A stretch of DNA of 64,000 bases from Albula goreensis. Taxonomy: Eukaryota > Chordata > Actinopteri > Albuliformes > Albulidae. The notes beneath the pieces were generated by a model. It was given only the letters and a program-made list of their open reading frames with translations, ran no database searches and had not been told where the DNA came from. The stretch spans positions 12,587,063-12,651,062 of the forward strand of contig CM040755.1 of NCBI GenBank assembly GCA_022829145.1, given 5' to 3'. A program made the position numbers and the translations under genes. The first letter of the stretch is position 1, and the number at the start of each line of letters is the position of its first letter. This document shows, piece after piece, positions 26,053 to 59,800 of this stretch.

Positions 26053-26087
<35 letters not shown>

Positions 26088-28440: not shown

Positions 28441-28469
28441 TGAACACTACCATGGAGACAGGTACGTCT

Positions 28470-28710
28470 ACTAAGAGACGGTAGCATCGATATCCGTAAA
28501 TTTAATTGCAATTTGAGACGTGATAATTCAGGCTTATATCGAACAACGGAACAAATGGAAATCAGCTTTGGACCGTAGCTGGCAGCAATTAGCGTAATAC
28601 TATCGTGTGCGCTCCTTGAGTGTGTTCTCACGGTGTTCATAATGGAACCAAGGATGCCTCTTTGCGCTGTGATCCAGAGGACCTGCATCTCCTGTATCCT
28701 CTCATCAGAG
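28470..28710 (-). other. Copy A of an inverted, strongly preserved non-coding element
   Basis: Read on the minus strand, this matches 59590-59800 on the plus strand. The 83-bp core at 28594-28676 differs by one base from 59608-59690. Outside the core the match continues for over 100 bp with many substitutions and small indels, including the shared blocks GATATAAGCCTGAATTATCA and CATTTG. There is no long open frame, tRNA box or poly-A tail. It is either a duplicated constrained element or an exapted ancient repeat. Confidence 0.85.
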
Positions 28711-29880
28711 TCTAATGGAGATTATGCAGTTTCATTGATATGAAAGCTGCCTCCCCAGGCTGGGCATAAATAGCACTGGTGCAGGTAAATATCCTTGGTA
28801 TATGCCATTTAATACAGTTAACTCTGTAATTAACTGACTGAATTACAGAGAAGTCTGGCAAATTGCTTTCCATTTTTAGGTTTCCTACATGCTGTGCACT
28901 GACATTTCTCTTGATCTGATGGTACGTCAAGATTGTAAAACCATGAGGGACGAGGCCTGGTGTACAATAAACGTGATGTGCTCAAATAGAATGAGACTGG
29001 TGCATGGAACATTATTTCCACAGAAACAGTCTATTTTCTGACTTGAGGTTCATGAGCAAGAAACCCGTTTGTTCATCTGAAAGAAACTCAAGGAGGAGCA
29101 CAGAGGGCAAGGAGCTGTAGGATACTCGAGGCTTTCATATGTCCCACTGAAAAGCCATAAGGTTTCACATCTCATGGGAGCTAAAGGAAAAGTGACTATT
29201 TCCCCATTTCTACAATGGCATAGAGGCATTTAATTTATTGTGTTAGGTTAAAGCCAGAATGCATTTCTAAACATCCATGGCCTGAATGCTGGTTGGTGGC
29301 TTTTGGCCGATGAGTCTGAGAAACTGCCAAGTCAATTATTGAACAGTGCTCTCAAATTTCAATGCATGTATTATTACTTTGATCATAAGCTTTATGAGCT
29401 GATATTTCTTTGCCACATTTTCACTGTTTGTGGTTTCTTCCAAAAGATCTGTAAGTTCAACACATAAAATGCACTCAGTATTTTGAGTAGCATTGTGTCT
29501 TAACTTACTTATACTGTAGGTAGGACACCATTTATCTTGAGCCTTTACCTTCTCATGGCTAATTAATTACCATTCATCATGCAATGTGCATGCTGAACCA
29601 TGTTTTTGGTGGGAGATTTTGGGTCCTACTATTTCAATCCAGTTTGCATTGAGCTCAGTAATTTGTCTGACACATGAAGAATCCACCAGTGTCAAAATTT
29701 TTCACTTCAGATCACTTACTGTCACAAGGCCCAGATAATCAAAAGTTTAATTAGTATGAGATCTTAAATGTATTGTGTTTGGGATTGTGAAATTAATGTA
29801 AAAAGTGCCATTGCTGAAAGCATGCCATAGAGAACACCAATTTTTCCATAACGCAGATCTTTCCTAGTTGCCCAATGATA
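28711..29880. other. Intergenic sequence, nothing recognised
   Basis: AT-rich sequence with no exon, repeat family or RNA gene that I can support. Confidence 0.5.
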
Positions 29881-29883
29881 TGA

Positions 29884-29896
29884 TGCCATCTAGTGG
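29884..29896 (-). promoter_or_regulatory. CTCF-like motif, minus orientation
   Basis: The minus strand reads CCACTAGATGGCA, a full match to the CTCF core CCASYAGRKGGCR. It is about 2.6 kb upstream of the start codon of the C2 gene. Confidence 0.5.
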
Positions 29897-31349
29897 TCAT
29901 GGTCATTATTACAGTAATATTTTACTTGCCATGTTTCAGCAAATGAGTGTTGTTTTTTTTAAGTAAAATAAGGTTTAACTGGGAGGGTAAAGGTGATTCT
30001 GTACCTGCTGCATGTAAATCCTTAATCCACGACTGTACCTCCATCCCCTCTGATTTTCTATACTTTTGGGGTAGGTTGACAACTATGTATATGATGAACT
30101 CATATTAAGCATAAATGTCTAGCATAAACTTATTTTGGTGTTGTGGCCCTCTTAGCCCGTGGGAGGTATCTTTAATTTTTAGGTAGTAGCTGAAATGTAT
30201 AGCCATTATAACTCATGATGACTTCTTTGCTGATTGAAATTAAGCCATTACATTTGCAGCAGTGACACAGTTGCTGGCATTAGTTTACATAATGTGAACA
30301 GATAAAATAAATGTGTAACCACCTTTGCAATGTGTGAAGTAAATGTCATGACCATGGAAAGTACTATTGTTTGCACTACTGAATTTTCCTATCAAAACAC
30401 CATTTATCATGCAGTAGTTGGCATGACCAAAATGAGGTTTTATATATAGAAGGTAAATATATAGAACCTAACATATATATACAGTATGATTGGGGTTTGT
30501 GAAGTTTTATGAAATCAAGGAGAAAGCCGTTGTGCTGTGTTTGTGGGGATCCATATTAGTCGCTGTGAAAGAGCATTAAGCACTTGCCCACTGATCGCAC
30601 TTGTGGAAGAGTGCCATTCTTGGGGGTCTCATTTGGCATATGGGGAATGTGTTTTTTCCACAAAGAACACAGAGGAGTTCTGACAGGATCTGGTGAACCA
30701 AAGTTACTCTCTTTGAGGCCATGTGCAATAAAAAAGTACTTAAATCTTTTCAGGGGCTGACATTATTCTGTTTTAGAACGAAAAGAACACATTGATGTGC
30801 ATGTAGCCATGATTTTGCTTTCAGTACTAAGATGATGACAGTTGATATTTTTTTCTGTTTGGATTTTCATGAACAGTAGTGGCAGGGTATAATAATGCTT
30901 CAGGTCATAATGCTAGGACATTTACGTTTTGTATGGTTTCATCCTGAAAATAGTAAATGTACGAAATCAGTGGGGAAGAGGTTGGATTCACTGATTTCTG
31001 ATAGAATGACCCAAGTGTGTGCCATATAATTGGGTTCATTACCAAAGTACCTCCATGTCAGTAGAATAAAATGTTGGACATATTACACAAAAGAAACAAC
31101 TGTCCACACTTCCATGGTCACTTCTTTTATTTCTTCCATGGGCACCTTACTTTCCCAGTCAGGAAAATTAATGAAAAAAGTGTCTATTAATACCAAAAGT
31201 GAATAAATACACCTAATAGTCAAATACCTCTAGGTTATGTGATATTTTATTATAAGAAAAAACAGGGGAATATTTTCCTACATTTATAACACATGCCAAG
31301 ACCTAGTTTTTAACATGTTCGCAAGCTGTTGGGGCATTATAAGATGTAT

Positions 31350-31363
31350 CCAGCAGATGGCAG
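31350..31363 (+). promoter_or_regulatory. CTCF-like motif, plus orientation
   Basis: The sequence CCAGCAGATGGCAG fits the CTCF core at all informative positions. It points away from the minus-strand motif at 29.89 kb. Confidence 0.5.
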
Positions 31364-33780
31364 TGTTGACCAGTTTTGGCCGCACTTTCAACCGTGAAGA
31401 TCATTGTCTGAGGACTGTTAACAAACTGAACAAAGAACGTCAATCAACAATTATCTGAGGATGTAAGGCCAGATGAAAATAATGTGGTCTTGACATTAGG
31501 AAATTTTACATACACGTACAGACACACATACACAAACCACAGAAACATGTCTGTTGTACTTACCAGCATATGTGATTGTTTTAAGTATCTGCAACTGAAA
31601 CAAATTCAGCAAGAAGCTAAGCTAAACAGCTGCCTGGGGACAAAGGCATAGTGGCCACAAATTAGTGATTGTTCATGTTTTATTCAAAGTGAGGTGAAAT
31701 TGTAATGAGGGGTACACATTTAACTAGTTGTAATGTCTGCAGCACACATTGTGCTCTCAGAAGGTATTTGAAAAATGTAAAACATTCCTCAGTCTTCCCT
31801 GCTATTGAGGAGTTTGACCTTGACCACCAAGATGACTTTTATCAATTATGCTTATGGGATATGGAAGTACAGAAGAAAAACATATAAAAACAATTGCATG
31901 GCCTTTATTGTATGGGATCTATATTCTACCAGTGAAGAAGCATAGAACAATGCACTGGTGAAAGAGTATGTCCTTGCCTCGACTTTATTCAATTCAATGG
32001 TGTTCACTGACAAATGAATTGTCCTGACAATTCAGAAAAAAAGAATCCATGCTTGGTTGGATACAGGATAATACAAGCCTTCCTTGAATATCCTATTCTT
32101 GCTGCTGTGTGTAGTTATTTAAAGAACTTGCGTGCCCACCCTCCCTCGCTTTCAGCGTATCAGTAAAATGTAACTGGCTCTGACTCCACAGACCCCAAAC
32201 ATATAAAGGGTTGAGATTAGATCAGAGCTCTGAAGGCTGACAATGGCCTAACTCTGCTCTCTGCTTGTACTTCCTTTATCTCGCCATAGTGTAGGGCACT
32301 AACTATACAAACAGATGCAAAATAGACAACGCCGCCAGCAAGTAGAACATTAACACAGGCTGTCTCTGCCTTTTATAAGAGGTTTGTTGGTTATGCTTGT
32401 GATTTGGGTTTTATTGATTCCCTGATAAATGTTAACAGGACGGACCCTATTTTTGAACTGGTGTTGGACACATGATCACCGAAGAGGTGCAGACTTCTGT
32501 AAAAAATTTAAAAGGAATTTCATATCCTCTTGTCATCCATGCATTTCCTCCCACTCAGTCAATTAAGCCATATTATTATTTAATTGGATATGCCAACCTA
32601 ATTTTGATGAACATAAGAGTAATTTACTTTCATAAAAATATTTTAAATATTGACTGATCATTATAATGTAAATTATATTGTTCAAAGGTACACAATTAAT
32701 TGATATTGATTGTGTTGATGAGTCTTCTTATTTTCACTTTGTAATGGGTACCCATAGATATACAGTGTGGTTTCTGCATAGCCTGTGGCTTCAGTATGTA
32801 GCCTGTGGGACCAGGACCATGATTGCTCACTGGAATAGTTTTACATACTCCACTAGATGGAGGCTTAATACCACAGGAGAAATTGGTAAAGATCAAATTT
32901 GCTTTGAAATTGTTGTCACATGATAATTATTCATAATTCAGATCCTTCACCCCATCAGAACAGTCATAGACATTCTGGAGTTAACATGCAATGTGATCGT
33001 TCCTCTGGAGGCAACATATAAGGTAGTAATTAAGCTTGTGATAATACAATGCGTATGACTCTTGAGAATTCATCAGATTACTTTTTGAAAAGTCATGGCA
33101 TTTCGGATTTTCACTCATTACATAAACTGTGCCTCTCTGTGCTTGGCATTTCACTACCCAGCTGAAGGTGTTTGATGTCTTAATCAAAAGCAGAGGGTGA
33201 TGAACCCCTTTTTCATGTGTTGGGAATATTCTGTTTAAATGTATATTTCTGATTGTCAGGTATGAAAAATTGCAAGAACAAATTATGCACAGTTAAATGA
33301 CTGTGTGGTCAAACCAGTTACACTGTGGAGATTACAATTATAAATATTACCCGTTTTTCATTTTTCTGTGCAAGTAGGTTGAAATCGAAAGGTTCCCATA
33401 TATATTTCTTGTACAGAATATATATTTCTAGTACAGTTGATAGTAATCAAAATTTAAACCCGGAATATGAATGCCAGTCTAAAAGAACACACCTGTCTTA
33501 CGTGGCAGTAACAATGGAGACCATGTTAAACACTCTGCACTCATGTCTGATTGAGCATATCGATCATACAGGTATGAAGGGCCATTATCATGCCACCCGC
33601 CTTGATAATCACAGAAGAGGGAACAAGTGGATATCCTCTTATATTGGCCATGATAATGAGCTCCACTTAAGCCTTGTCTGATGTCTCAGTGTATAGCTTT
33701 GTCATCTCTGCTATGAGGCAAACCATGGCTGTGTGCAGTGGAAGGGGATCCAGAGAGATTTAGGCTGGGAGGGGGGTCCT
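31364..33780. other. Intergenic sequence
   Basis: AT-rich. A moderately GC-richer patch at about 32130-32380 might be regulatory. No exon is supported. Confidence 0.4.
32850..32863 (+). promoter_or_regulatory. Weaker CTCF-like motif
   Basis: CCACTAGATGGAGG matches the CTCF core except at the C after GG. It has the same orientation as the motif at 31.35 kb. Confidence 0.3.
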
Positions 33781-33794
33781 GAGTGTACCAGGGG

Positions 33795-33935
33795 GCATAT
33801 GCAGACGCACACACCCCGACCCACATGCATGTACACATCCACACACAGACAGACACACACACTTACGCATAAACAAATACGTACAAACACACTTACACGT
33901 GCACATATAGATACACATACATAATAACATTAATA
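33795..33935. repeat. Imperfect CA-rich array
   Basis: About 140 bp of interrupted CA/CACG repeats. The open frames across it are artefacts of the dinucleotide repeat. Confidence 0.85.
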
Positions 33936-34039
33936 TGAACATTTGTGCATGTAGATGCAAACACACGTAGACTACAAACTCATACATGAATGTGCTGTTA
34001 TACAAGCGCACATATATACACATATGTCCATGCGGTCAC

Positions 34040-34520
34040 AGAGTCACATGATCACACACCAGCTGGCTGACAGGTGGGCACAGAAGGGGGAGCCCCTTAG
34101 AAGGTGCAGGTACAAGATGAACTTGGGGAGGTTTATTAAAGGAAATCGCACCATGTCACACACCATCAAAAGGCCCAACAAAAACACTGCTGCTGGAAGA
34201 TTTGTCTGGAGTTTGGAGAGCGCACGGCCATTGTGTGAAACAGCGGGGGACAAAGAAACAAGACCATCCATGCAGAACTGAGCAGCTGTGGCCAGATCTC
34301 CATGTGGGGAGGAAGAGGAGGGAGAATAAGAAAGAAACGGCCAGCTGAAATGATCTCAGCCGTGCCTGATATTAACAGGCAGATTAAAAAGAAATTCCGT
34401 CCACAGTGCATAATCCTCCAGCGCAAATGTACTATTAATTTACTCATCAGAATGGAGTGACTGTTAATGGAGATTAGAGACAGCTGTTTCCCATTTTGGC
34501 TCTTTTTGGGGTCTATTAGT
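34040..34520. promoter_or_regulatory. Candidate enhancer-like island
   Basis: GC-richer than the flanks, ending in a run of homeodomain-type words (CTATTAATTTAC, GTTAATGGAGATTAG, GGCAGATTAAAAAG). There is no open frame with splice support. Conservation could not be tested. Confidence 0.35.
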
Positions 34521-36640
34521 GGTGGCCTCTTTCTACAATAGAGCACAGTTAATTGGAGCCAGTTTGCTGTGAATAGGTTAGAAAGCTAGCACATACAGAT
34601 ATGACATACATTATGACTGGTTATTGTTGAGAAGCCTTGTGGTCTTGCTATTGTCCTGCACTGGAAGGGTGCTGTGCCAACTGTTGCATGTTGCACAAAA
34701 GCGACTCTTCAGGGAAAACTGAATCACACAAAAAGAAATAAACATGGAAGTTGTCTGTCTTCAGTTAGTCTGAACATTAATGTGTCTATTCGTTTTCCTT
34801 AACCAACCTTCATTCATGTCACATTTCTGTTTTGCACAGGGCAGTTTTACATTTTATTTTAAGTGATCACCTTTTATTACCACTTGGCTGAATGCACCTC
34901 AGAGTTAAAGCTAATTTATATTGCCAAATAATGGCTACTTTGGGGTTTTCCTTTGCATTTTCTGTACTGCTTACACTGGTGTGGAGATATTTTGATGGGA
35001 ACTTAAAAGATGGGCCAGTTTTGCAAGATGTGTATGCACGCTGAAAATCCTAATATACAGAGAACATGCAGCATTTGAGAAGAGACTCTGTGTGTACTAC
35101 TCTGATGGAGATGGCATGAAGTGTCTGGTCCTGAATCTAGATCCCTTTGTTTACACTCCCAAAGAATCTCTTTTCATGTAACATCTCTTACATCTAGTGT
35201 GAAAAGTGAAATCTTTTAGCCACCTTTTCCAGTGTAAATAAGTCCTTAAAGACTAAACATGCTGTGGACAGGTTTAATGGTGGCCCAATGGCATTTAGTG
35301 AGATGCTTCATTTGGGCTCTGGAGAAAAGGCACAGCCCAGACCCGAGCTGCAGGCTGCAAATGTCACCGTTCCTGTCTGCCTCTGTGAGCATTTGCTCAC
35401 GTCTCCTTGTGTCTGAGCATGTCTCGGGCTGCTGGCCATGGGCCTGCGCCTTGATTACCTCTGTGCGTGTGTGTGTATCTGTGTGGAGATGCTATCTGTA
35501 GGCTGACTGAGTGAGGGGTAAGGTATGGCTGGGAAAAGGGGCAAAGCAAAGCTGTCTCCCCTAAATGGTCCTCAAAACAAACAAAATAGTATGTGTGTAA
35601 AGTTATGCTCGGGAGAGCTCTTTTTGAAGCCTTTCTGTACTCCACACTGTTCATGCTGCACATTTAACCTGGAAAACTTCAAAATAATCCCAGGTTCACC
35701 AGTAAATACTAGTTATTACAAAACACTGTAATAGCTGGTATTTGGATCCTTAAGTTATTCACCTGCCTGGAATCCCCATATATCCATTTATTTTGAGCAA
35801 TATGTGGTTGCTTTTGTAATTACCAGACACCTAGATTTGTGGTCTTCCAATCTGACAAGGGTTGACACATTCTGAACACGTTTCTCTATGTGGATGACAA
35901 AACCCTGGCCAGATCTATCACAAAGAAATATATCCATTGTTGCTATAATGTTGCTATTATTGTAAATGATACATTTACATATGTTATATTAATGTATACA
36001 TTTTGTTTTCTTGTTTTTTTTCTGAAGGGAAGTGGCTGATGTCCGTGACTGTTGATGGCATGGAAACAGGGAATCGATTGACAGGTGTCAGTCCTGGTGC
36101 TTGAGCCTTTGCAGCCATGCCTCGCCCACCTTGTGTAAGCCTCTGAGGTCACAGCGCTGGATGATCACTTTCAGGTACATTTCTATGACTGTTGTTGATG
36201 CATTCCCAGGGAACACAGAGCTAACAGTTTGGTATTGCAGTGAATGACTCAGCTGCAGCAAATGAATTGTTCTCCTTTCTGCTAAAGAATTCACTTGCCT
36301 TTAATACTGAAATCATGGTATTTAGTTCCTCTACTACAGTTTACCCCTGTGCGGCACTAATTCATCTCAGCCACAGGTAGCTAACGTGGTACTAAGACAT
36401 TTACCTCTGTTCTCTCGTTCTAGCAATTTATAAGCACTCCACTTGGGCACTACACACATATACAGAGTTTTTAATCAAACAAATAATACATCTGCCTGAC
36501 TGTAGTTTCATGAAGCTTGCATTCCTTATACTTTGAGCTGTTTGCTGCTTGAGTATAACGTTTTTAGCTTGGCTGTCCTATAGTTCTAACTTTAGTTTTC
36601 AGGGGTTTGGGCAAACAGAGGGTGCGTGATCTGCTATTAA
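34521..36640. other. Intergenic sequence
   Basis: AT-rich. A GC-richer patch lies at 35320-35500 and a short TG run near 35465-35483. Nothing coding is supported. Confidence 0.4.
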
Positions 36641-36649
36641 ATGCAGGCG

Positions 36650-37240
36650 TGTGATTTCCAGCCTTCAGAGAGACAGTGGTCTGTGAACTGGGCTCTAACT
36701 GTTTGGCCTAATCAATAAAAATGTCAGCCCTAAATGTTACACAAGGTCAGAGAGTTCCCAAACGAGGTCTTTGAGAAAAACGCACGCGCCTTCTCTCCCA
36801 ATCTTCAATCTATTGCTATTGGAAAGCAGTCCGAGGTCAGCGCACTCCCGTGCCTACCGTTAATTTACCACCAGGTGTCAACACAGTTTGGCTTTCTCTA
36901 ACTTTCCTTCATTTATTTTTCTCCTGCCATCCTCCCTAGTTTCCTCCTTTTTCTCTTTTTTTGAAAAGTCTGTTTTCTTATTCGTCAACTGTGGGGGAAA
37001 GTTTGTTGGAGTTATTTTTGGTTCTGGCCAGAGCAATTAGGTGACCGTCATCCTTCTAATTCATTGGGAAGGAGCTGATTCCTGCGGCAGGGGAAGGCTG
37101 TGTGATTTAAAGCTGTCCCTGAGAAGCTGAAGCTCATTGTGTGTCTCTGTACAAGGCTTTGGCAAAGCAGAAACTGCTGTAATGTAGAGATTCTGTCATT
37201 TCCAGAGCTGTCAGACAACTCTGCAGTTGTGACCATGGCC
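36650..37240. promoter_or_regulatory. Candidate enhancer-like island
   Basis: Contains a CpG patch (ACGCACGCGCC), homeodomain-type words (CGTTAATTTACC, CCTAATCAATAA, GCAATTAGGTGACC) and a one-mismatch CTCF-like word CCACCAGGTGTCA at 36868-36880. No coding support. Confidence 0.35.
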
Positions 37241-39889: not shown

Positions 39890-40270
39890 GATTTACAGTG
39901 GCTATCACTGGCCCCTCCTCGCCTCTCTCCAGACCGTTGGTCAGAATGATGTTTTGAGTGGGCGAGCGTGGCCTGTCCCATAAATTCTGCTGGTGCCTCT
40001 TTTTTATGCGCTGGAGGCAAGCGCAGAGCCGAGGTCAAGGTCAGAGAGGTCACTGGTCCCTTTCTAAAGCCACTCTCCATAGCCTGGAGGTCTGGCAGCC
40101 TGTGCGGCTCATTACGGCCTTATTAATCGGCTCAGGACCCAAACTTTCCATCCAGGACATAATGAAAGACCCAATGAAATCTGATTCTGAGGACTTATCA
40201 TGTGTGTGTCCGTACGGTAGAGCCGTTTCACATTTCTCTGCCTGTGGTTTCTCTGGGGCTGTCTGAATGC
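39890..40270. promoter_or_regulatory. Candidate enhancer-like island
   Basis: A GC-rich block in AT-rich DNA with TTTTTTATGCGCTGG, CCTTATTAATCGG and GAGGTCAAGGTCAGAG (nuclear-receptor-like half sites). Open frames occur on both strands with no splice logic, so a non-coding role is more likely. Confidence 0.35.
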
Positions 40271-42190: not shown

Positions 42191-42194
42191 CTGG

Positions 42195-42445: not shown

Positions 42446-42539
42446 TAGGCGCTTTGTCTCTTATTACGTTCAAGAGCTTGGGTTTGATTTCCGCTCTTGA
42501 ATGGCCAGGTAAAGGAATGATGCTGAGTATGTAATGCAC

Positions 42540-45800: not shown

Positions 45801-46180
45801 AAATGTCAGTAGTAACAAGAATATATGTTCATTTTTTTAAAGCAATGGTCATAAATGAAATCATTTTTTTATTTTATATGTCCTGCTTTGGCCAAATTAG
45901 AACAAGTGTTTTTTTCTTTCATTTTGTTATTATTAGTTAGTGGTCTATTGCATTTTGCCAAACAGAATGGTTTTATAAATACTCTGAACATTATTGGAAA
46001 ATACGTCCTTCTGTGAATATCAATATGTGGAATGCAGGTTTTTTAGAAAATCTGATTAGTGGAAATATGTATATTGGATGGACAGAGGAGGATGGTAGAG
46101 ACTTCATTTATAAATCATAGTATTTTAAGTATGGGCACAGTTCAAAGGAATGATTTTTCCAGCACTGCATAAATAATCTC
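42833..46180. other. Intergenic sequence, nothing recognised
   Basis: Very AT-rich, with an AT run near 44288-44300. No exon or repeat family is supported. Confidence 0.45.
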
Positions 46181-46189
46181 TTCTTGAAT

Positions 46190-46640
46190 GTTTCCTATAC
46201 GTGCTTTTGTTCAGGTGTGTGGCATAATGCACCCTGGCAAGTTCAAAGTGAATGAGCGGGTTCATGACTTTGTTTTTTTTTTTGGGACATCCCTCTGTCC
46301 CTCATTAGAACTTCAAAGAATTTCCAGCGCGGAATCGTTTGTCCCTGCTCAGAATCTGAGGCACAGAGGAAGAATGGGCAGATTTCACGCCGCTCCACTG
46401 ACCGCGCGTGTCTCATTGTCCCGCACGTGCTGGGGTAAGGGGGCCCCGTGTCCCCTCCACCCCGCGTGACAAATTCACTTGTCACAGCGTGCATGCTCAT
46501 TATGGAAAGTTTGCGCACCTCAAAAGGAAGAGGCGGGGGAAGTGGGATAGGGAGGGACACACTTTGAGACTTTAAAGGAAGATCCTCCTGGCCTCCCTGC
46601 CCAGGCTGATCCTCACCCACACACCTGATGCGCTGTAGAG
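46190..46640. promoter_or_regulatory. CpG-richer candidate regulatory island
   Basis: The CpG cluster at 46330-46530 includes CACGCCGCTCC, ACCGCGCGTGTC and an E-box CACGTG at 46424-46429. It stands out from the AT-rich flanks. A 208-codon minus frame crosses it, but it reads into low-complexity sequence at its start and shows no domain. Confidence 0.4.
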
Positions 46641-49600
46641 GGTTACTGACTTGGTGAGGTGGGGCTCCTGCTGCAGTTGCAAAGTTACTCATCACATTGG
46701 GAGTTTGTATGGTATGATTCCATTTGAATAGAGCATTGTTCGAGTACTTATGGTCCACTTGACAAGGGGTCTTGCTGTAAATACTGCAATTTGACTCCAG
46801 CTGGTTGTGTGGCTTTGACAGCAGCCAAATAGCACTGCACCACAAAAAAGAAAGAAAGAAAAAAATCAATATTGGGTGCTTGTTCAGAGCAACCCCCTTT
46901 TCTCTGTCGTGTTAATTTATATAAGAAAACATCCAGTTAATCGTAAAAAGAGGACTACATATTTCACTCATTTAAATAGATGCTTGATACCAATTTTCTT
47001 AAATACAGACCTTTATGAAATCCATACATACATTTTAGACCCAAATCAAAGTATTTGTATTTTCTTGTTTGTAATTTTATCTATTTTAATTGACTTTATT
47101 TGGACACCTTGAATGTTTTCTGCAATGGTTTCCTGTTGTCTTTACATTTTCTCAGTTGTGCTATGAGTCATTTTGCTTTTCCATCGCTGTCTCTTAAGGC
47201 AATATTTCTTATCATTCAGGGATTGTTTGTCAACAAAATTGATAGTAACCCTGATATAACCCATAAGGAATGATAGGTAATGTTATTCTTTTACCTGTTT
47301 TCTATTAACTGTGATACATAGACTCTTTTGTATGATACATACACTGTGATGCTAACACTCTTCTCTGAACACAGTGTTAAAGGAACACTGCTGTGTGCCC
47401 AGGCAGGTGTAAAATGTCTTAAATCATACATAAATCATGTTTTTTGGGAAAAAGCTATTGATGATTATAGTCATGAATATGGAATATGATAAAAACATAG
47501 AAAGGTAACAGCCTTAATTAAAATTCACACATATTCACATCAAAACCTTGATTAACTGAATACTAGATTGGGTCCATTTCTTTTAAAACAGCAGTCCGAA
47601 CACACCAGAGATCAAAGATCTTGCATTTTAAAGCATCTTTGCCCATTCCTGTAAAGGCTAAGTGTTAAAACATTTCACAGCAACTTGAAGAGTTTTTGTA
47701 AAAATTCTCGGCAAATAACATATTAATGGCCATAGTATCTCATGTGATTTTGTCATTGTGTTAGCATTGATTTTATTTCATTTTTAAAATCACATTAATG
47801 ATTAATATTTGCCCACAAAGGACATATTTAATTTACACAGGTGGTAGAATTTTTTTTTACTATTGAATATTGCCTCTCCTCCTGGAAAAAATACTTTTGT
47901 TTATCAATACAATAAATGGAAAAAAAAAAATATATATATGCATTTTATTTTGATTCAGCCAATTTATTTAAACATTTAAGTGAGGCAGAAACAAGACATC
48001 CAACAGAAAACCAAATAGTTGTATACACGGCTACATGCTTAACAATTCAGTAATTATTACATATGTTTTGGAACAAAATTGAGGCTTGTTTGTTGACTAA
48101 GATAGATTAATGAAGCAACAGCCCAACGTTTGCATGTTATTGTATGAATAAAGAGATGAAACAGTGGAAGATTATTGATTTTAGATGTCCCTGAGGCTTT
48201 GAAATGGCCATCAGGCTCAAGATTAAAAGGTACACAAGGGTATAAAAGTGATGGGGTAATGACCACTCCACTGAAAATGCCTCTTAAAATGTGTTGATTC
48301 GGCCATGCATCCAAATTATGGTTCTTTTTGTTCTTCATTTGGTTTCTCACATAAAAGTGTCACATTTATTACAGCTCGTTTGTCTGTATTTGAATAAAGG
48401 TATCTCATGACTACAAAAATTATGCTTTAAACAAACTATACGTAAATTACTTTACTGAGCCAGATGATATTGGAGGTATGTACCGGACTGACACTCTGGA
48501 TAGTAGTACTAACCAGGATATAAATACATTAATTTCAGCTACTGTACCATTAACTTCTTCACCATGAATTTCTATATCTAAATGATATTGTATTTTTTAA
48601 TCACTGTGTTTTGAACACTCATTGTATTATTATACAGTTAAATTATACAATTTCAGTAGATAGTAATCAGGCAACAATGGAAAATGTTGCTGAAGGTGTT
48701 AGGTTTTTTTTTTTTTAGGAAAAAAACATTATTTATTTTTAGTTACTTTCAATAGATATATAGAAATGTATGCATATCTTAAACCCCTTACATGAGTGTA
48801 CTTAAGTTTGCACTCATGTAAAATGAGAGAGTCTGTATAATAAATAATGTGCACCATATGAATTCACAGATTGCAAAGTACTATTTAGTATAATATTTTT
48901 ATAACAGTGGATAAATTAAAACAGACATTCTTGACAATTTCAGTCTTGCCAAAAAGTGTAATTAAAATTTAAAATTTTGTGAATTAGGGTTAATATCAAT
49001 TTATTATATCAATCAAGTTTTAGACTGTTGTATTTGATTATAATATGCATTTTCCGTTTATGTTAAAATAATGCAGGGGTGGACAGAGCTGGGTATTCAT
49101 TTAGAAAACAGTCCTGTGACAAAAAAGGATATCAGAAGAGGTTTGTTAGTTTAGAGGATCAGGAATCAAGAGGATTTTTGCTTTTTTTCACCACCAAAAA
49201 TCTCTTATGCTGTTGTGGACCCTACACAGTGTATCAGGGCATACATTACAGTACACAGGAAGGAGCCAAACTCCTTTTACTGTCTGAATACAATGAGATC
49301 AATCAAAACCAATTGGTTGCATCAAAGCTTTTTAGCTGATTTGGCATCCATGGAAAATGTCTTCTCTACAAGATTTGAGAGACAACTGTCAAAATGAAAA
49401 TAAGGAATCGGGCCTGGTAGACTTGTAATCGCTGTAACTCAGCATTCACAGATAAATGAGAGAGCTTCATTCCTGTTGTGTCACGGGAACATTGATCTTT
49501 GTCTTCATTGATGAAAAAGATCACTTATCATGTGTGTTAATTGGGAAACATCTTAGTCTACATATTCCCATATAGATAACAAAATAGATTATTTCTGTTC

Positions 49601-50570
49601 CATGGCACTTTAGGATAATTCCAAAGTGCTGTGTGAGCATAACAGAAAACATCTTGATTAAGAGCTGTAATTAGATGAATACCCTTTTAAGAAGGAGTCA
49701 ATTAACTCTTCCCTGAAGGGTTCATTTATATTTTAATGAACAGAAGAAGATCCACTATTAGTGATCTTTAAAAAATACAATAGCTCGATGGTTTAACTAT
49801 AAGTCCCAGCAAAATGTAATACAGTAATACTGTATGTCTTTTATTATGCAATTAATTTTCTATAATTCAGGCTTCATTTATAATTGCTCTGAACCAGGAA
49901 TCCAATACTGTAGACTTTATTATGCTCAAGACCTTCTTTTCCCCAGATTGTCTTTTTTTAAAATCAGTAAAAATCAATAGATGCATATGTTTCAGACATA
50001 TTTTATTCATTTTCCCACAAAGATTCCAGGGTGTCATTCAATATTTTCATTGCATATGCAAGGCTTTATGATATTTTGTATTTCAGAATCTCCCTTGTGT
50101 GTCAGGCTGTGTAAATATTCAGCACAATAGCAGTAGGGATCTCTGGCTGAGATCTTTAGAGTAGGCTGCCGGTGAGGTAAGTTCTTCATTTCTTCCCTGC
50201 CGTCAAAGGGAAGTGCAAATGGACTTGATGTGTGAAGCGTGTATGAGCATTTGTATAGCTCTGTGTTCTGTGTCCTATAAGTGTGTGTGTGTGTTTGTGT
50301 GTATGAGAAGATACATGGATGTATATGATATGTTGCAGTATATCCAAAACGCAAACTGACACGCAATCCACAATTGAATGTAATCAATAATGGTCACTAT
50401 ATACATTCTGACCAACATTTTGATTATCAAAGACATGGCTGGATCAACACCTTAGTGTAACAATACACTGTTTCTCTGTGGGATTTCAATAGATGTCACA
50501 TACTATAACAGATGTTACTTACTTTGATAGATGTTGCAGAATTTTACTCTAGTAAAAAAAGAGAATTCAG
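46641..50570. other. Intergenic sequence, nothing recognised
   Basis: AT-rich with short A, T and TA runs and a TG run at 50280-50301. Confidence 0.45.
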
Positions 50571-50574
50571 TTTC

Positions 50575-50930
50575 CCCTTTCTTTCAGGGGGCTGGACGAG
50601 AGGGAGAGCACAGTCCATCTGTTCCTCTGAGATAGCATTGAGCAGGCAGCAACTGGTCAGGGAGGCTGAAGTGACAGAGGTCAAAGGGCCCTCTAACCCT
50701 GTGGGCAGTGTGCTTCTGTGGCCCCAGCTGCTTGGGGGGGACGTACATCTGGGAGGTTTCAGCCATGATGGCAGTGACGAGCCAATCAGAGGCCACCTCC
50801 TCCAAACCAAAAATGAGAATGTTCCGATCCGGCAGTTCCCCCACAGGCGTGTCCCCCCGCTGTGATTTTGAGGGGAAAGCTCTTTTTGAATGCCGTGTTG
50901 AAAATGAACACCCTGCTGCCAGGAAAGGGT
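50575..50930. promoter_or_regulatory. GC-rich island, regulatory element or orphan exon
   Basis: Open on both strands. The minus frame 50844-50584 includes DRNILIFGLEEVASDWLV and AETSQMYVPPKQLGPQ, which looks protein-like. On the plus strand CCCCTTTCTTTCAG precedes another open frame. No frame has matching acceptor and donor signals and I do not recognise either product, so I favour a non-coding element. Confidence 0.35.
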
Positions 50931-53900
50931 GATGCTTGTCACTGGTCTGGAGAACGCTGTGGTCATTAGGTTTGGGGGGTAGCAGGTTGTGTGGGGGGAG
51001 GGTAATCTTTCTCTCCTTGCAGTGATTGCTGCAGCCTCCTTATTTATCCTGGCCACAAACTCTCATTTCTCCCAGGTACAGTGCTGGTTCTACACGTCAC
51101 TCCATTACTGGAAGCCATTTTCTTTCAGCCTATCATCACAGATTGGCACATTCACTGTTTCACACATTTTAAAAGATGATGCTTGAATACAATTGAAAAT
51201 TACACATCCAACCCTCTCTGGGCTTATCAATTTGAGCTACATCAAATTGAGTGACATGACTGTTACCATTATTTTAAGAAAACACTAGTAGTACCGTAAT
51301 CATACTTTAGGACCTTATTCTTATCCTAGGAGCATGATGCAGTGTTGAGGTACTGGTGGGAGACAGAGAGGGGGCTGAGGCAGAGGGAACGGTAGCCTGG
51401 GATACATAGTGCACATTGGCATTCATTTATGGAGGTGCCACTCATTAGCACTTGTGCACACAGGTGTACAGCAAAACAGAATGGGGGCTATGGAGTGCAG
51501 ATAATGACGAATGGGCAGCTCTTTGCAGATCCAGATTAGTGCTATAACCCAAAAGATGGCACCAGGATTGTGGTGCACAGTGTGAGCCACGGGCCCCTCC
51601 CAGCCCATACCGCTGATTAATGAAAGAGGGTTTGACAGACCTGGCCGATGTGACGGTATCCTGTGTGAAGCCACTCCTGGCACACTGTGGGTGGTGGGTG
51701 TAGAATGCAGAATACAGATACCTCATTAAACCCTGGTGGAGATTATGCTGGGGTCATGGTGTTATTGGTGTTTAATGTTGTCAATGTACAGTATAGGGAC
51801 TTATTGATGGAATTTGCACATGTATGTAAATGGATGTGCTTTGCGCATGTATGTATTTGTTTATACATGGATGGGTGTGCATGTATTAGGGTTGTTTTTG
51901 TATGATTTTCATAATGATTACACAATAAGCCTACAGCAACAAATTTGTTAGGTTAATTGTAGGTCTGAAACCTCCTACAGTTTTCCATTTATATGAATGT
52001 TCTCCTCACAAAAGCAATGTTTCTTCAGAAGTGAAAATCAGAAGTGTTTGTTTGACTGCTGCTGACAGGAGACTTTAATGCTTTAATGTTTCTCTTTTCA
52101 GTTCCTGTGATATTTGAATGATAATCATATGGTTAACCCTACTCATGAACAATTCTCAACCTTTTGTGCACAAAATCGGTCGTACATTTTATGGGATTCG
52201 TTTTTAAAATACATAAGTTAGTCAGACTAATGTTTGTGCTGATAGACTCCCTGCATGGACAGCTGACCTGTGTGTTTTGTAAAATTGTTTCACAAAACAA
52301 TTTGGCACTGTTGGCAATAAAACAATATAATGAGCTTTTAATGATATGAAGGCTTTTATGTGTGTTTTCCACTGCAGGGAAATACCACCTTGCTGCACAC
52401 ATGTAGTCTATTTGCTTTATTTGCAAAGGAAATATTATGTTTTTTATAATGATCCATTATGGTAGTGACTTGGATTCCTAGATTCTTTGTTTTGAATTGA
52501 CCTTTCTGTGTGCCTGTGGGTGTTTTATGCAGTATATCAAGTATAGTATATTGCAGTTATATATAGTATATCAAATGTTTGTATTTTGTTTGTATTTTAC
52601 TGGTCTCCATGAAGACTACATGTTCCTGACATTCTAAAACATAGTATGGTCATTGTTGTTTCAGAACAAATACAAATAAAAACTTATTTTGAGAAGTCTC
52701 ACCTAGATTCAGATTCAGAACCACAAATCGCATTCTGCTTCAAGTTGTTATGTCTGTGATATTTGCACACATTAAAAACTATATGAAGTACTGTAAGATA
52801 ATTAATGAAGACTGTATGACTGTAGTGATGGCTGTATTTTTATATATTGTAAATGTTTTATTGAACTATTTGCTTTAATTGTTGTGTTCATACAGTTCTA
52901 TCAAACTTTAATTTTGAATCACACTCGACCTGGTTATTACGGCTGACTTCTGAGGAACGCTCTTTATGACGTGGTATCAGGTTTTCACTTTGGCTTTTTG
53001 TTGTGGCTTGCAAATTTGTATACCGTATTTCATTAGAGTAAAATATACTATTGTCAAGATGCAAGTTTTCTATGCGCCAAACTGAAAAAAAGTTTTGCGA
53101 AAGTGGCTCATTGCACTGGCTTTAACTCATTCACAATTAAATGAAATAGGACATTCTTGGAAGGCTGATTTTAAGCATTATAAATGAGTTCACATTGAGC
53201 CAATTGTAAGCCAGCTGAATAACATGCTGATAAGTATTTATCCTGACAATATTGCCTAAAGACAGCTATGCAAAAGGAATGCATACTTAAAGCAGAATAT
53301 GTCTTAAAAACAACAACCTAACTCTATTACCTTCAATAAAAGAAAAAGAAATAGAAATTGCTGTGGTGAAAGGTCGATTTTTGAGGAAGACGCTCCCAAA
53401 TGGGAAAAGTGTTCCTTCTTGTATTGGTGAATGTTCGCTGAGACAAAACAAGGAAAGGGATTTTCAATTTCTCATTTTTCCACAGCTGAGTTTCCCCTTA
53501 TCCCACAGAGTAAAGGAGACACTGAGGTTTATTACAGGTTATTGTACATCAAAGGCAGGAGATAGAAGGGGCCAAGGGCAGGTAAACCTGAACCAACAGC
53601 CTGTTAACTTTTTTAACGATTACTATTAGGATAGTGCCAAGGAAACCAAAAAGTACCCAAAAGATGGCATCTATAGCTTTTCATGAAATACAAATAATCA
53701 TGATGGCAATTAGCATTGTGTACAAGTGGAGGTATTTTATGACCATGAGATCATAGTTTTGCATCTACCGATCAAATAATGTTCAATGCCAAACATTTGG
53801 AAAACTGTAAAATAAACACATTTTATCTGCTAAAAAGAAAAAATTCTGCACACGTAATCTGTTGTAAATATATTAAATAAAACAATACCCCACAACACAA

Positions 53901-54880
53901 AACACAAATATTTCTGATTTCACAAAGTAATAAATAAACACAAAGATAATACATTGTGATGAGATCAGTTGTCCATGAATGTTTTGCAGATGTGTTTTAA
54001 CAAAAAGGAAAGCTTTCATCTCATTTTGGGCTTTTTGTTGTTTTTTTTTATTGATTTGTCTTTCCTCACAACCCTGGAGTTGAGTCCATTAAGATACTGA
54101 ATGGCTGTAGACAGTGGGAGAGCAGAGAGGGGAGACCGCTGAAGGACACACTGTCGCCTTTGGCACAGAGAGCCTTTGAAAAGGCAGGATCCTTCTTTCT
54201 GCACAGCACCCATGCTGATCATGCTTGGATTTGGACGTTGACTAAAAATTCATTTCTCAGTGTATTTTTCCAAATGCATCGTGTAATGTCTGGTACGAAA
54301 GGGAGATTTCAGTTTCAAGCCAATGGCGCAGCCAGCATTACCCTGGTGAGTGCCTTCACCAACTGAGCCACTTGGGAAATCCTAACATCAGGTGAATCAG
54401 AAAACGCATTAGATTAATTGCAATAAGATTAAAATACCATGTTATTACCAACAAATGCAATTACAATTATATACTCTTCCAAAAAAGAAATTATACACAT
54501 CAAAGTAACTAGTTTATTCTCAAGTTTAACGCCATATTCGTATGTATCTTTAAAATATATCTTCCCATGAATCTGTTTTCTAACCAATATATACTTTATA
54601 TTTTTCAAGTCATTATAAACACACAAAATACAATATACTTTCATCTCTTTAATATCTTCTGAGGTTTTCAGTGCTCAGCTCACACCCATCAATACAGTCA
54701 TGAGGAACTGGGATGAGGAAGTTTGGCCCTCACCCATTAATGTAGTCATGCGTATCAGGAATGGGGAAGTTTGGCTTGTTGCCAGAGGCAGGCTCAGAGC
54801 ACCCGGTTTTATCCTTAATAATGAACAACCACACTGCATAATGAAGAGGCAAAGGATCCTTACTTAGAGCCTGGTGTCAA
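50931..54880. other. Intergenic sequence
   Basis: AT-rich, with a small GC-richer patch at 51.33-51.70 kb and an imperfect tandem duplication at 54683-54776. No exon is supported. Confidence 0.4.
54683..54776. repeat. Imperfect tandem duplication, two units of about 47 bp
   Basis: Each unit begins CACCCAT(C/T)AAT and ends GGAAGTTTGGC. The units differ at several bases and by about 2 bp in length. Confidence 0.75.
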
Positions 54881-54889
54881 TTACATATG

Positions 54890-55215
54890 GATCTGTTACT
54901 GACCGGCTAGTGCCTGCACAGTCGCCATGCGTGCTCTGTCACATCAGACCACCCCTCTGGGTCACCTGCGGCTCGGTCCCTTTGGCATCAGCTCAGTTGG
55001 GGAATTGGCGGAAATTGTTCTTACGGCTGAGCTGTGATGATTTTGGTGCCAGGGGCTGTGAGACAGTCAGAGGCTCAGAGTTATCATTTTAAAATAACCA
55101 CAGGGAGGGAGAGGATGTGTGCCTGGGAGCTTCAGAAAGGAGGCCATGATCTGGAGCACCTTCTCGTCCTCGTTTCTGGAAGTTCAGACAGTGCCATGGC
55201 CATGAGGTTCAAGTG
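54890..55215. promoter_or_regulatory. Candidate enhancer-like island
   Basis: A GC-richer block with scattered CpGs in AT-rich DNA. The plus-strand frames lack splice support. Confidence 0.3.
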
Positions 55216-56560
55216 TATCTGTATCTGTTGGTTGGAAATGGTCCATCTTTTTTGCAATGGATGTCTGAATTAATGAATGTCTGATCGAATGAATGAAAAC
55301 ACATTTATCCTTGTCTAAGGAAAATCTTTTATCATGAACACAGTAGGAAATATGTAAAGGTAGTACAATAGTAATAGTGCGACATATTCAACGTTAAATG
55401 GGATTATATATATATATTTACTGAATATATTTTATATATGTATATTTTTCTGTAAAGTAAACCAAGTAACTACTGCTTATTTTTACTTGACCTGGCGGTT
55501 GTTTCCAGAAAGTGAGGCATCATGTCACGTTTTACAGTATTAATTGACCAGACAATTTATTAGTTGATTTATTAATCTATTGATTGATATTAAGATGCCT
55601 TTATGGGATCACCATTTGTAGTCCAAAAAAATGGTCAGTTGTACTCATGATAAAGATTGGCATATAGAATGTCTCAGAAACAGTGTGTTGGTTTTCTGGG
55701 TAGGTTTTAATTTCAAATTGAAGCTTCTCTATCACAGACACGCCCCCACAGCTTTTCTCAGAGTTAAAGATGCCGTACATCCTCACAGTTAATGGGCAGT
55801 GAACCCGCTGGCATTACAGACACAGTCAATACCTCACTGATGCATGGGTGAGCTTTGTCCATGGTTATTGCTTTACATTTTCTGTGTTTAAACACTGCAT
55901 GAGCAAAGGAAGCCCCCCCAGACTAAGACAAAGGTGAAGGTAAATGCAAACAGCCCATTGATATCACAAAGCTCCTTATCTATTTGCCCTGTGTACATGG
56001 CCTGTTTAAATTAATTTATGTGTTTCTTTATACCTCTATGCGTGGGCCTGGTGGCTGAATTTGACTTTGTTAACACCAGGTCATGAAGAGTCAGGATTAG
56101 TGTCAGTGCTGGCTTTTTGATGTGACAGTTCAAGCAACCCCTAATCTCATCCGGGCCCCTTAACCCAGCCTAACCCACTTGCGGTCCTCATCCATATTCC
56201 ATAGTGCAGTTTCCAATAAGAAAAAAACATCAGCTAGTATCACAGATACAGGGGACATCCAGGGACACATTTGTTTTTACTTTTATTTTAATGTATGGCT
56301 GAAATTCCAACCATGTCCATATTATGAATTTCTTGATGTGATCATCAGTAACACATCATTTGTTTTGAAAATGTGTGGTAACAGAAGGTAAATAAATACC
56401 AAAATCCAACGAATTGCAAATAGTGTGAGCTGTCTACTGTGACTTAGTCTTTTATCTTTCAATGGTTAAAATATTTGAGGCTTATTAAACTAATGCTAAA
56501 GCCTCTTCTCCTTTCCTATATAACCATTGACTTAACAACATGATATTGCAGGTTGTGCAA
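55216..56560. other. Intergenic sequence, nothing recognised
   Basis: AT-rich, with a TA run near 55407-55440. Confidence 0.45.
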
Positions 56561-56561
56561 A

Positions 56562-56651
56562 TGTGTGTGTGTTTGTGTTTTGTGTGTGTGTGTGTGTGTG
56601 TGATAGAGACAGAGAGAGATAGAAGGAGAAGCCAGAGAGTTTGCATGCATA

Positions 56652-56705
<54 letters not shown>

Positions 56706-56706
56706 G
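56562..56706. repeat. Two TG arrays
   Basis: TG runs at 56562-56603 and 56654-56706 flank a GAGA-rich spacer. The long TG run is uninterrupted for about 50 bp. Confidence 0.92.
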
Positions 56707-58055
56707 TGAGTTAGTGGGGGTCCAAGGTGGGGGTATCCTTGATGTCCAAGGACTGAAGCCCCTCCACCCCTAACTTGATTGTGAGAGCTTGTGGACCAGA
56801 TTTTACCCTCCTCGTGGTTCATGACCCCTAACCCAAACTCACACAGTCATCCAGCTTTTAAATAGATAGAGGCAGATGCTTGTAATGGAATAGCTGCCCC
56901 AGTTACCCAAGGGCAGGATAGGATGAGAGAGATCAAACTGTTTGGAAGAAAAATCTACTAATGGAACTCTTCAAATGAAATACTGGGAGAAGGAAAACAC
57001 TAGAGCCGTTGAAAGATACTCTTTAGAGAGCTAGTTTGCTGATGATGCCTGTTTTTTGATGAAACAGTGTAAGGCTGGTGCTAAGTATTCAGAGGGTAGC
57101 CTTTTTATTCCAGTTTTATCATGGAGCTAACCTTCAGCTTTGCTGAAACAGCCAAATGCAGGAAATATCCTATAATTAATAGTGTGTTATGACACATCCG
57201 GTAACATGTATATCATATATATATAATTAGTCAATTCATTTAGTCATAAGAGCATCTGGGGACCTTGCCCAAAGGTTTAAGATTGTAGTCCATAATATAA
57301 TTAAATACAGCTAAAGAACACTTATATGGTGGCTCATTGAGGTCATTGTGTAAAATAATATTTTTGGAGGCTAGTTATCTTGACAGCACAAGCTAATAAC
57401 CTCAGGGTCTAAATGTGCCCAGATAATTATGCAGCAAACAGTCGGTGTGTAACTCATAACATTACCAAAGCAGGTATAATTCACAGCTGGTAATGCTATT
57501 AAAAAGTTTGGGGTTATTTCATATGTGTAAGCAATTTTGTGAGAAAAATGAATGTCACAATTCTAAAATCAAAAATCTGAAATCAGAAATGTAACATTTT
57601 GAAATCAAATAATTCACACTTGAACCTCAGATATATGGAACTTGGAGAGTTATGGAAACAACGGTGAACTGAACGGGCACAAACCCAGAAGCAGTATTTT
57701 AATCACAACGTTTCAATGTCAAACTTTCAATGTAAGCAGAATAGCTTGCTTGCCTTTCTCACCTGATATATCATCCCTACATTCAGAATGGTTCGTCAGA
57801 TCCCTCATGACAGCTGGCTTATTCCAAAATGAAACTAACAGAGATGGAATGGTCATGTTGTGTAGAAGGAGCCTTGGCCTATAGCAAAGAGGGGTGCATC
57901 CCCACAGGTCTAAACTGATATTCTTATTTTCTGTATTATAGTGAATGGAGCCAACAGTCAGTGTTTGATTAATGTTGATGAATATTAAATGAATGTTTAT
58001 AATGTACAACTTCATAATAAGCTATTTTAACAAATACTGTTGAAAGAATAGGAGC
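56707..58055. other. Intergenic sequence, nothing recognised
   Basis: AT-rich, no repeat family or exon supported. Confidence 0.45.
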
Positions 58056-58059
58056 ACAG

Positions 58060-58440
58060 TGCTAATATCTGTTCCTGACTGCTGGCCTGCGGTACTGATA
58101 CTCATTTAATGAGACGGAGGACAGGACAGTCAGAGTCTGGACCGTGGTGCGTATGTGGGCTCCCCCCTCTGATGAGCCATTGTTCTGACAGGGGCCAGTC
58201 TGATTTGAGCTTTCTCTGGTCCTGGTGAGTGACAGCTGAGGGCTACCAGAACGTGGGCTCCCATTTGCAGTGGAGATCAGGGCCTGCTGGCACATCCCCA
58301 GCTATAGGGGAGCTGCCGGGGACTCCTCACACGGGCTGATGTCCTGACAGCCCAGAGCGCTTGGCTGAGCTCCTGTCCGCCAGAATGTCATCCACTTTAG
58401 TTTTCTCTTCTCCTTGGTCCCTTGACCCTTGACCCTTGAA
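58060..58440. promoter_or_regulatory. Candidate enhancer-like island
   Basis: A GC-rich block with CATTTAATGAGACGG, and tandem TGACCCT words at its right end. No splice-supported frame. Confidence 0.3.
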
Positions 58441-59589
58441 AATCATGGCAAACAGACTGGATCAGCTGTCCACCAGCTTTCACATGTTTTCCATTGTGCT
58501 GCTGTCCAAAAAATGCAGCAATACTGGCCGTGTGGTTTGGTAATGAAGCAAAATTTGATAATTTCAAAGACACGACTGAGGAAATTAATGTCAAATGAAG
58601 CTTTCTCCAACATCATGGTTTAACACACAGTATACAATGATTATAATTGGGGTGGAGAAGTGAAAAAAAAACATTTAAAATGCTATAAGTGCCTCAGGTT
58701 AACAACAATCATGAATATTTTTATTGTTGTGAATTATTAGTAAGTAATACATCTGCGGATTTGTCTTTTGAAATGTTCTGTTTTTGCTCAGACTGGGGAG
58801 GAGCTTTGGTCGTGTGTGCATGTATGAGAAGCTCATAAGCATGTTGGCCAGTCGGATATGCATGTGTGTGACACAGCATAATGTTGATACAGTATCTGAA
58901 CATGTGAGAAGATTGTATGTTCAGTGACAAGGAGTTCTTAATAGAGGGTCATCAGATGGTCACAAGAGTATTAGATGTCAAGCTGTGCTGTTTGATATAA
59001 TTTATAACATTTTACTCAGTGTAAGCATACCGTATCTGTATCCTGTTCTACAAGCATATACAGGTTATAGAGAATCAGGTCAATACATTCTAGTTTCAAC
59101 TTAGTTATCAGTGAGGACAACTAATGTAAGTTCAGCTAATTCAAAAATATACTTTGGTAAACAATCTGTAAAATCTAGAATACCAATTTGGCCAAACAGC
59201 TGAGAGAAATGAATATACAAAGCTTTTCTGGGGAGGGCTAAAAAAAAATCAAAACATTTTATTTTGACCTTCCCATCATGCACACACACCAATTCAGTCA
59301 ATTGTTCATACTAATATTGTTACCAGTTAGGGAACCCTTCAATTTGACACATGGGGCGAGTGTAAAGTTGGCCTTTGCATGTAATTTCTCGATCATGCTT
59401 CGATACAACAATCTTCAATAAGGAGGATGAAGTTGTGAAGAAGAAGGAAGCCATGAGTGAGGTGATTCAATGCTCTCCTTCGAGCTATTGCAACAAAGAA
59501 TCGCTTAATGCAACAGAAATGAGATTTGGAGTGTATTTTTAAACTAAATTAAATTGCAGAGGCGCCACCTCTCTCCTCTTCAGACTGTA

Positions 59590-59800
59590 GACGGGATACA
59601 GTTCCTGTGGATCACAGCGCAAAGAGGCATCCTTGGTTCCATTATGAACACCGGGAGAACACACTCAAGGAGCGCACACGATAGTATTACTGCATTACGC
59701 TAAATGCTGCCTGCCACAGCTCAAGGTTCATTTTCATTTGCTCCATTGTTTGATATAAGCCTGAATTATCATGTCTCACATTACAATTAAAGCCATAGAC
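59590..59800 (+). other. Copy B of the inverted, strongly preserved non-coding element
   Basis: Partner of 28470-28710 in opposite orientation, about 31 kb away. The core at 59608-59690 contains GCAAAGAGGCATCCTTGG and AAGGAGCGCACACGATAG and has one difference from copy A. Right after the core this copy has an extra TGCATTAC, probably a small local duplication, before the match resumes. Confidence 0.85.

What the first reader, a model, noticed from the sequence alone, without database searches (positions are those of the whole stretch)
28470..59800. Inverted pair of a non-coding element with an 83-bp core differing at one base
Cores 28594-28676 (minus) and 59608-59690 (plus) match at 82 of 83 positions, while both flanks continue to align but are clearly decayed. 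A recent transposon would be similar throughout. A preserved core within diverged flanks suggests selection on both copies, as in duplicated enhancers or an exapted ancient SINE-like repeat. The two copies bracket the first half of the gene desert.
Basis: partly seen in the sequence, partly recalled or inferred. Interest (0 to 1): 0.78.

Follow-up and report, generated by a model that had tools for sequence, protein, structure and literature searches.

The report
Inverted twin enhancer-like elements beside onecut
A stretch of non-coding DNA was found at just two places in this vertebrate genome, in opposite directions 31 kilobases apart between a synaptic gene and a developmental switch gene, and its core looks held nearly unchanged by selection in both places.

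Summary
Cores 28594-28676 (-) and 59608-59690 (+) match at 82 of 83 positions, inside a ~438-bp inverted similarity whose flanks have decayed to 57-65%. Searches of the 932-Mb assembly found the core and the whole element only at these two places, so it is not a SINE-like family. Tests for coding, known RNA and CTCF sites were negative.
New context: on the left an unc13-family gene (5' exons in the window), on the right, about 120 kb from copy B, a onecut gene. A second unc13/onecut pair on contig C1 shares colinear conserved sequence with this region. At copy B's place on C1 the flanks and second block are recognisable, but the core is nearly gone; at copy A's place nothing is detectable. So B's site is the older one, and A is probably a later inverted copy.
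Best reading: a duplicated regulatory element of the onecut/unc13 region, both cores under purifying selection. Enhancer activity and target gene are inferred. Gene conversion is the main rival. No other vertebrate genome could be compared, and without one it is open whether C1 lost the core or never had it.

The parts
59595..59707 (+). copy B, conserved core (113 bp, carries the 8-bp insertion 59686-59693 relative to A)
28585..28689 (-). copy A, conserved core (105 bp), inverted
59728..59795 (+). copy B, second conserved block (57 of 68 identical to A)
28497..28564 (-). copy A, second conserved block
59538..59976 (+). copy B, whole extent of detectable similarity to A (left end 59538-59594 weakly supported)
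28309..28745 (-). copy A, whole extent of detectable similarity to B
59423..59610 (+). sequence left of and just into copy B's core, also present at the duplicate locus C1:21259425-21259613 (67%)
26580..26609 (-). unc13-family coding exon (VKRGKLLGPP), 30 nt, placed by splice signals
   Evidence: read from the sequence
22218..22317 (-). unc13-family exon, first part of C2A domain
21728..21845 (-). unc13-family exon, C2A domain; matches UNC-13 homolog A, PDB 2cjt, E 9e-7; Pfam C2 only below its cut-off (15.3 bits of 22)
21490..21583 (-). unc13-family exon following C2A
26751..28750 (.). zone of raised CpG (o/e 0.41 to 1.1 in eight 250-bp bins against 0.30 for the window), candidate unc13 promoter region; copy A lies at its edge
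49425..49783 (+). other conserved element shared with the duplicate region, C1:21251687-21252042 (77%)
62852..63218 (+). other conserved element shared with the duplicate region, C1:21262433-21262797 (76%)
34099..34288 (+). other conserved element shared with the duplicate region, C1:21237796-21237983 (85%)

Best explanation
This is a locally duplicated, inverted conserved non-coding element, most likely a transcriptional enhancer, in the interval between an unc13-family gene and a onecut gene. Shown: two places only in the searches of the assembly; inverted; decayed flanks; near-identical cores with all core CpGs shared; a duplicate region elsewhere in the genome where copy B's flanks and second block are recognisable, the core nearly absent, and no copy A detectable. 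Inferred: copy B's site is the older; copy A arose as an inverted copy about 31 kb away, near the unc13 promoter; the C1 core decayed and was partly deleted; both C15 cores bind the same set of factors and have been kept by purifying selection; they act as twin (partly redundant) enhancers, probably on onecut, possibly on unc13 from copy A.
For: Two matches in 932 Mb with the 83-bp core, the 439-bp and the 437-bp elements (2 of 2 candidates scored each time) and with 27-mer and 31-mer patterns at up to 3 mismatches (reversed-pattern control 0). Identity is patchy, core 95%, spacer 65%, block 2 84%, flanks 57-65%, as constraint on sub-elements gives. CpG: 5 of 5 sites shared in the core, 0 of 14 shared outside it, in a window with CpG at 0.30 of expectation. 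The duplicate region on C1 is colinear: 11 of 17 alignment rows with E below 0.001, all plus and in order. There the 439-bp copy B scores 46 against a maximum of 22 in 40 shuffles, but its core is reduced to a short remnant, so this sequence seems to decay where not held. The best 83-column stretch of those 17 rows (two of them copy B's own counterpart) is 74 of 83, below the 82 of 83 of A and B. Context: CUT and homeodomain exons matching HNF6 and ONECUT2. In chicken, 98 candidate elements around Onecut1 were tested; most were inactive in retina but several drive expression there (PMC7082998, passages and part 1 of 4 of the Results).
Against: No other vertebrate genome could be searched, so conservation of either copy between species is untested. 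Recent gene conversion from A to B would also give an identical core and shared CpGs. Copy A lies in a CpG-rich zone where CpGs may be kept anyway. Much of copy B's match on C1 comes from its left flank: core plus block 2 alone scores 26 against a shuffled maximum of 21 (30 shuffles), and copy A does not exceed shuffles there at all (17 against 21; 20 against 24). So C1 may have lost the core or never had it. The absence of A from C1 is weak, since little of that interval aligns. No chromatin, expression or reporter data. Recalled motif tallies show no enrichment.
Confidence: 0.58

Rival explanations
1. Gene conversion between the two copies has homogenised a short tract, so the core identity reflects a recent copying event and not selection.
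For: One near-perfect tract of about 100 bp in otherwise diverged flanks fits a single conversion tract; no interspecies data exclude it; the two copies are closer to each other than to the C1 counterpart in core, block 2 and right flank.
Against: A second conserved block at 84% beyond a 65% spacer, and an 8-bp indel inside the near-identical tract, make one clean tract less natural. Flanks of about 65% identity offer little homology for recombination 31 kb apart (general knowledge).
Confidence: 0.22
2. A low-copy ancient mobile element (exapted SINE or DNA transposon of the Eulor/UCON sort) inserted twice.
For: Such families exist in vertebrates and some became regulatory (PMC5753468, passages). 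The two copies are inverted and have definable ends.
Against: No third copy found in 932 Mb; no Rfam or tRNA match in the window; copy B's flanks and block 2 are at the matching place of the duplicate region.
Confidence: 0.06
3. The pair is an architectural element (inverted loop anchors) and not an enhancer pair.
For: Inverted orientation and position next to the probable unc13 promoter. Two exact matches to the recalled CTCF consensus lie at 29884-29896 (-) and 31350-31362 (+), outside but not far from copy A.
Against: No match with up to 2 mismatches inside either ~438-bp element; the count in the window, 21, is not far above the shuffled mean 15.1 (10 of 100 shuffles as many).
Confidence: 0.07
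4. The core is an unrecognised short coding exon or a structured RNA.
For: One frame of copy A is open across core and block 2.
Against: The 8-bp indel shifts the frame and copy B then meets a stop; no Pfam match for the ORF over copy A; folding z-scores between -0.48 and 0.59 for four strands; no Rfam match.
Confidence: 0.03

Closest known systems
Duplicated conserved non-coding elements (dCNEs) of vertebrates, as described in PMC2781166
   Same: Non-coding, more than one copy in one genome, cores far better kept than flanks, near a developmental transcription factor gene
   Different: [quoted passage not shown] here both good copies lie in one interval, inverted. The B/C1 pair is of the dCNE type, but its C1 core is nearly absent
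Onecut1 regulatory elements of the chicken Onecut1 region (ECR9, ECR65 and others, PMC7082998)
   Same: Upstream side of a onecut gene; several drive retinal expression
   Different: Sequences of those elements were not compared (supplements not available); no wdr72 was detected in the fetched stretch with a recalled partial query without a positive control
Exapted ancient repeats (MER121, LF-SINE, AmnSINE1, Eulor, UCON; PMC5753468, passages)
   Same: Similar conserved sequences at more than one place
   Different: Those are families; here two local copies
Shadow or twin enhancers (recalled, no call)
   Same: Two elements with presumably similar output for one gene
   Different: Activity untested here; shared sequence by direct duplication

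Membership tests
Vertebrate duplicated CNE (dCNE) | non-coding | tested here: met
   frame broken by 8-bp indel, no Pfam match for the ORF over copy A
Vertebrate duplicated CNE (dCNE) | present more than once in the genome as non-repetitive copies | tested here: met
   two places
Vertebrate duplicated CNE (dCNE) | copies lie near paralogous genes | tested here: not met
   both intact copies lie in one interval; the counterpart beside the paralogous genes on C1 has little of the core
Vertebrate duplicated CNE (dCNE) | conserved between distant vertebrates | not testable with these tools
   no other vertebrate genome held; exact 26-mer and 20/21-mer scans of the prokaryote and viral collections gave 0, as expected
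Exapted SINE / ancient repeat family | multiple dispersed copies | tested here: not met
   2 places in the assembly
Recent transposon pair | similarity uniform to sharp ends | tested here: not met
   identity falls from 95% to 57-65%
CTCF boundary pair | CTCF motif in each copy | tested here: not met
   none within either element at up to 2 mismatches from a recalled consensus
Enhancer | activates a promoter in a reporter assay | not testable with these tools
   no experiment available

The most novel reading that the evidence does not exclude
After the duplication that made the C1 and C15 regions, the C1 copy of this regulatory core was lost while the C15 element doubled in inverted orientation, so that one onecut locus gained two near-identical twins as the other lost its own: a shift of regulatory copy number between duplicate loci, with the new copy placed at the unc13 promoter and possibly recruiting that synaptic gene into onecut-type control.
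Probability: 0.18. Interest if true: 0.72.

Novelty: new member of a known kind. Interest (0 to 1): 0.5.

Why it matters
If both cores are held by selection, the pair is a natural test of why extremely conserved non-coding DNA stays so: two copies of one core in one locus, plus a degraded counterpart at the duplicate locus, show which bases are kept and which decay, and redundancy between twins 31 kb apart can be tested directly by deleting one or both.

Tried and rejected
Rejected: repeat family; coding exon; structured RNA; CTCF pair; haplotype or assembly duplicate (flanks too diverged). Led nowhere: string search of six 14-15-base pieces of the core in 5.39 million papers, 0 papers; paper searches for inverted, cis-duplicated or paralogous conserved elements, where I saw listings and, for a few papers, passages, and saw no report of this pair; an Iroquois-cluster idea, dropped once a onecut gene was found; recalled motif tallies, no enrichment; the first coding exon of the unc13 gene, not found, so whether A is upstream or in intron 1 is open; UNC13C-specific exons with a recalled query, none convincing. 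The Pfam scan of 129 ORFs gave seven families of one member each, best E 0.006, taken as chance. The third exon's structure search also listed fimbrial-subunit constructs (E 3e-5) with no stretch passing on its own. The random-pair control had one draw of 170 against the observed 188 (mean 21.8 of 200), so I rely; the maxima for core and block 2 (44.5, 24.5) probably come from draws overlapping the element. The three-way site counts cannot root three sequences and do not date the duplication. The first 50 kb fetched from C1 gave only simple-repeat matches.
Full report
Check of the observation. The similarity is longer than the core: blastn limited to the two neighbourhoods joins 28338-28745 to 59954-59538. 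Segment tests against 1000 random pieces each place its ends near 28309/28745 and 59538/59976, with the left end weak. Identity runs 57% (left flank, 32 of 56), 95% (core, 100 of 105 plus an 8-bp indel), 65% (13 of 20), 84% (block 2, 57 of 68), 65% (right flank, 114 of 175).

Copy number. Three DNA queries (83, 439 and 437 bp) each returned two places in the 931.9-Mb assembly, both in this window, with 2 of 2 candidates scored (the last two with E up to 10). Pattern scans with 27 and 31 bases and up to 3 mismatches gave one forward and one reverse hit each, and none for the reversed control. The tool warns that its DNA search skips very common words. In 264 kb of the locus, self-comparison (E up to 1e-8, 60 bp or more, low-complexity pairs removed) gave 11 rows: eight belong to two tandem arrays, one is a nearby hairpin (112494/113155), one another dispersed pair at 79% (252087/259377), and the strongest dispersed pair is this one.

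What it is not. No Rfam or tRNA match in the window. Folding of four strands gives z-scores of 0.02, 0.59, -0.25 and -0.48. One frame of copy A is open, but the 8-bp indel breaks it in copy B, and Pfam found nothing in the ORF over copy A. A recalled CTCF consensus with up to 2 mismatches does not fall in either element; two exact matches lie at 29884-29896 and 31350-31362.

Neighbourhood. Four minus-strand exons at 26580-26609, 22218-22317, 21728-21845 and 21490-21583 encode the start of an unc13-family protein with a C2A domain; the third matches UNC-13 homolog A structures at E 9e-7, while the Pfam C2 model matches only below its cut-off. MUN-domain exons on the same strand follow at C15:12457218-12509846, presumably of the same gene. 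The first coding exon was not found. CpG is raised from about 26.75 to 28.75 kb, a likely promoter region, and copy A lies at its edge. To the right, 200 kb were fetched: a plus-strand ORF with a CUT domain starts at window coordinate 181244 and a homeodomain exon at 187698, best matching HNF6 and ONECUT2 chains; a myosin-5a-like exon lies at 263326. Only five ORFs of this 200 kb were given to Pfam, so it is not shown to be free of other genes up to 181 kb. Human ONECUT1, MYO5A and UNC13C are neighbours on chromosome 15 (recalled). In chicken, 98 elements of the Onecut1 region, from the last intronic region of WDR72 to Fam214a, were tested; most were inactive and several drive retinal expression (PMC7082998; passages and part 1 of 4 of the Results). 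A recalled partial WDR72 query found nothing in the 264 kb (best E 0.81), with no positive control. UNC13C is named as lying in a gene desert in human (PMC1794582, passages).

The duplicate region. The genome has 19 CUT matches, six of them strong single ones, and a second unc13 (minus) with onecut (plus) arrangement at C1:21.08-21.37 Mb. A 20-kb query from the window, with 39 of 409 candidates scored, finds matches there to 49445-49783, 61709-61885, 62852-63120 and 63805-63999. Reading C1:21251501-21263700 and comparing it with window 49001-64000 gives 17 rows; the 11 with E below 0.001 are all plus and in the same order, the six weaker ones are not all so. Among the 11 are 59423-59610 to C1:21259425-21259613 (67%) and 59731-59774 to C1:21259687-21259730 (77%): the left side and block 2 of copy B. 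Between them C15 has 120 bases and C1 has 73, and what stands there on C1 aligns poorly (41 of 71 columns over the core) apart from a short remnant around CCATTAT. The whole of copy B scores 46 there against a shuffled maximum of 22; core plus block 2 of B alone 26 against 21; copy A does not exceed shuffles. So the homology of the place is well supported, the former presence of the core likely but not proven. At the matching place for copy A, C1:21229853-21235547, bounded by matches to 27251-27284 (E 0.001) and 32150-32399, neither copy in either direction exceeds shuffles; little else aligns in that interval, so this absence is weak.

Interpretation. Copy B's place is older than the split of the two regions. 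The two C15 cores have hardly changed although their flanks have, and they keep 5 of 5 CpGs while 0 of 14 CpG sites outside the core are shared (by hand, the chance of that split is 1 in 11628, treating sites as independent). The 17 rows between the two regions, two of them copy B's own counterpart, reach at most 74 of 83 in their best stretch; that was not computed for the 85% element at 34099-34288. Purifying selection on both cores explains this; so, less well, does gene conversion between them. Three-way counts: in block 2 C1 has 21 unique states, A 7, B 2; in the right flank 51, 21 and 18; but in the left flank A is the odd one (20, against 8 for C1 and 1 for B), so the left flank may not belong to the A/B copy at all. 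Such counts cannot root three sequences and leave open whether A arose before or after the region was duplicated. Absence of A on C1 favours after.

Mechanism. Shown: sequence, copy number, position, the state of the C1 place. Inferred from the known behaviour of conserved elements around developmental transcription factors: the cores bind a set of factors and enhance transcription of onecut over about 120-150 kb; copy A, near the probable unc13 promoter, may serve that gene instead or as well. The inverted direction needs no special role, since enhancers work in either direction (general knowledge).

Novelty. Duplicated conserved elements are known, normally beside paralogous genes (PMC2781166, passages; paralogous elements in teleosts, PMC11034925, passages). 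A pair inside one interval, inverted, with a degraded counterpart at the duplicate locus, is a less usual and useful case. My searches for such pairs showed no report of this one, but the library lacks most subscription journals.

Noticed in passing
window 49425-49783, 62852-63218, 34099-34288, 61709-62002, 63805-63999: Conserved elements shared, in order, with the duplicate unc13/onecut region on C1 (66-85%); a ready set of duplicate-retained elements for this locus.
   Followed up: partly
window 21490-26609 (-): An unc13-family gene beside onecut that keeps a C2A domain; mammalian UNC13C, its positional counterpart, is recalled to lack C2A. It lacks about ten residues present after C2A in the recalled Munc13-1.
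   Followed up: partly
window 12707-12946: Tandem array of a 21-bp unit, 11.4 copies, open in plus-strand frames as repeated heptads.
   Followed up: no
window 54468-54605: A dispersed repeat with matches at 72-79% on many contigs, one of few in this repeat-poor window.
   Followed up: no
window 59686-59698: The 8-bp insertion in copy B looks like an imperfect tandem duplication of the adjoining ATTAC motif.
   Followed up: no
window 28520-28575 and 59718-59772: In spacer and block 2, four CpGs of copy A stand as TG or CA in copy B, as expected if A lies in an unmethylated zone and B does not.
   Followed up: partly
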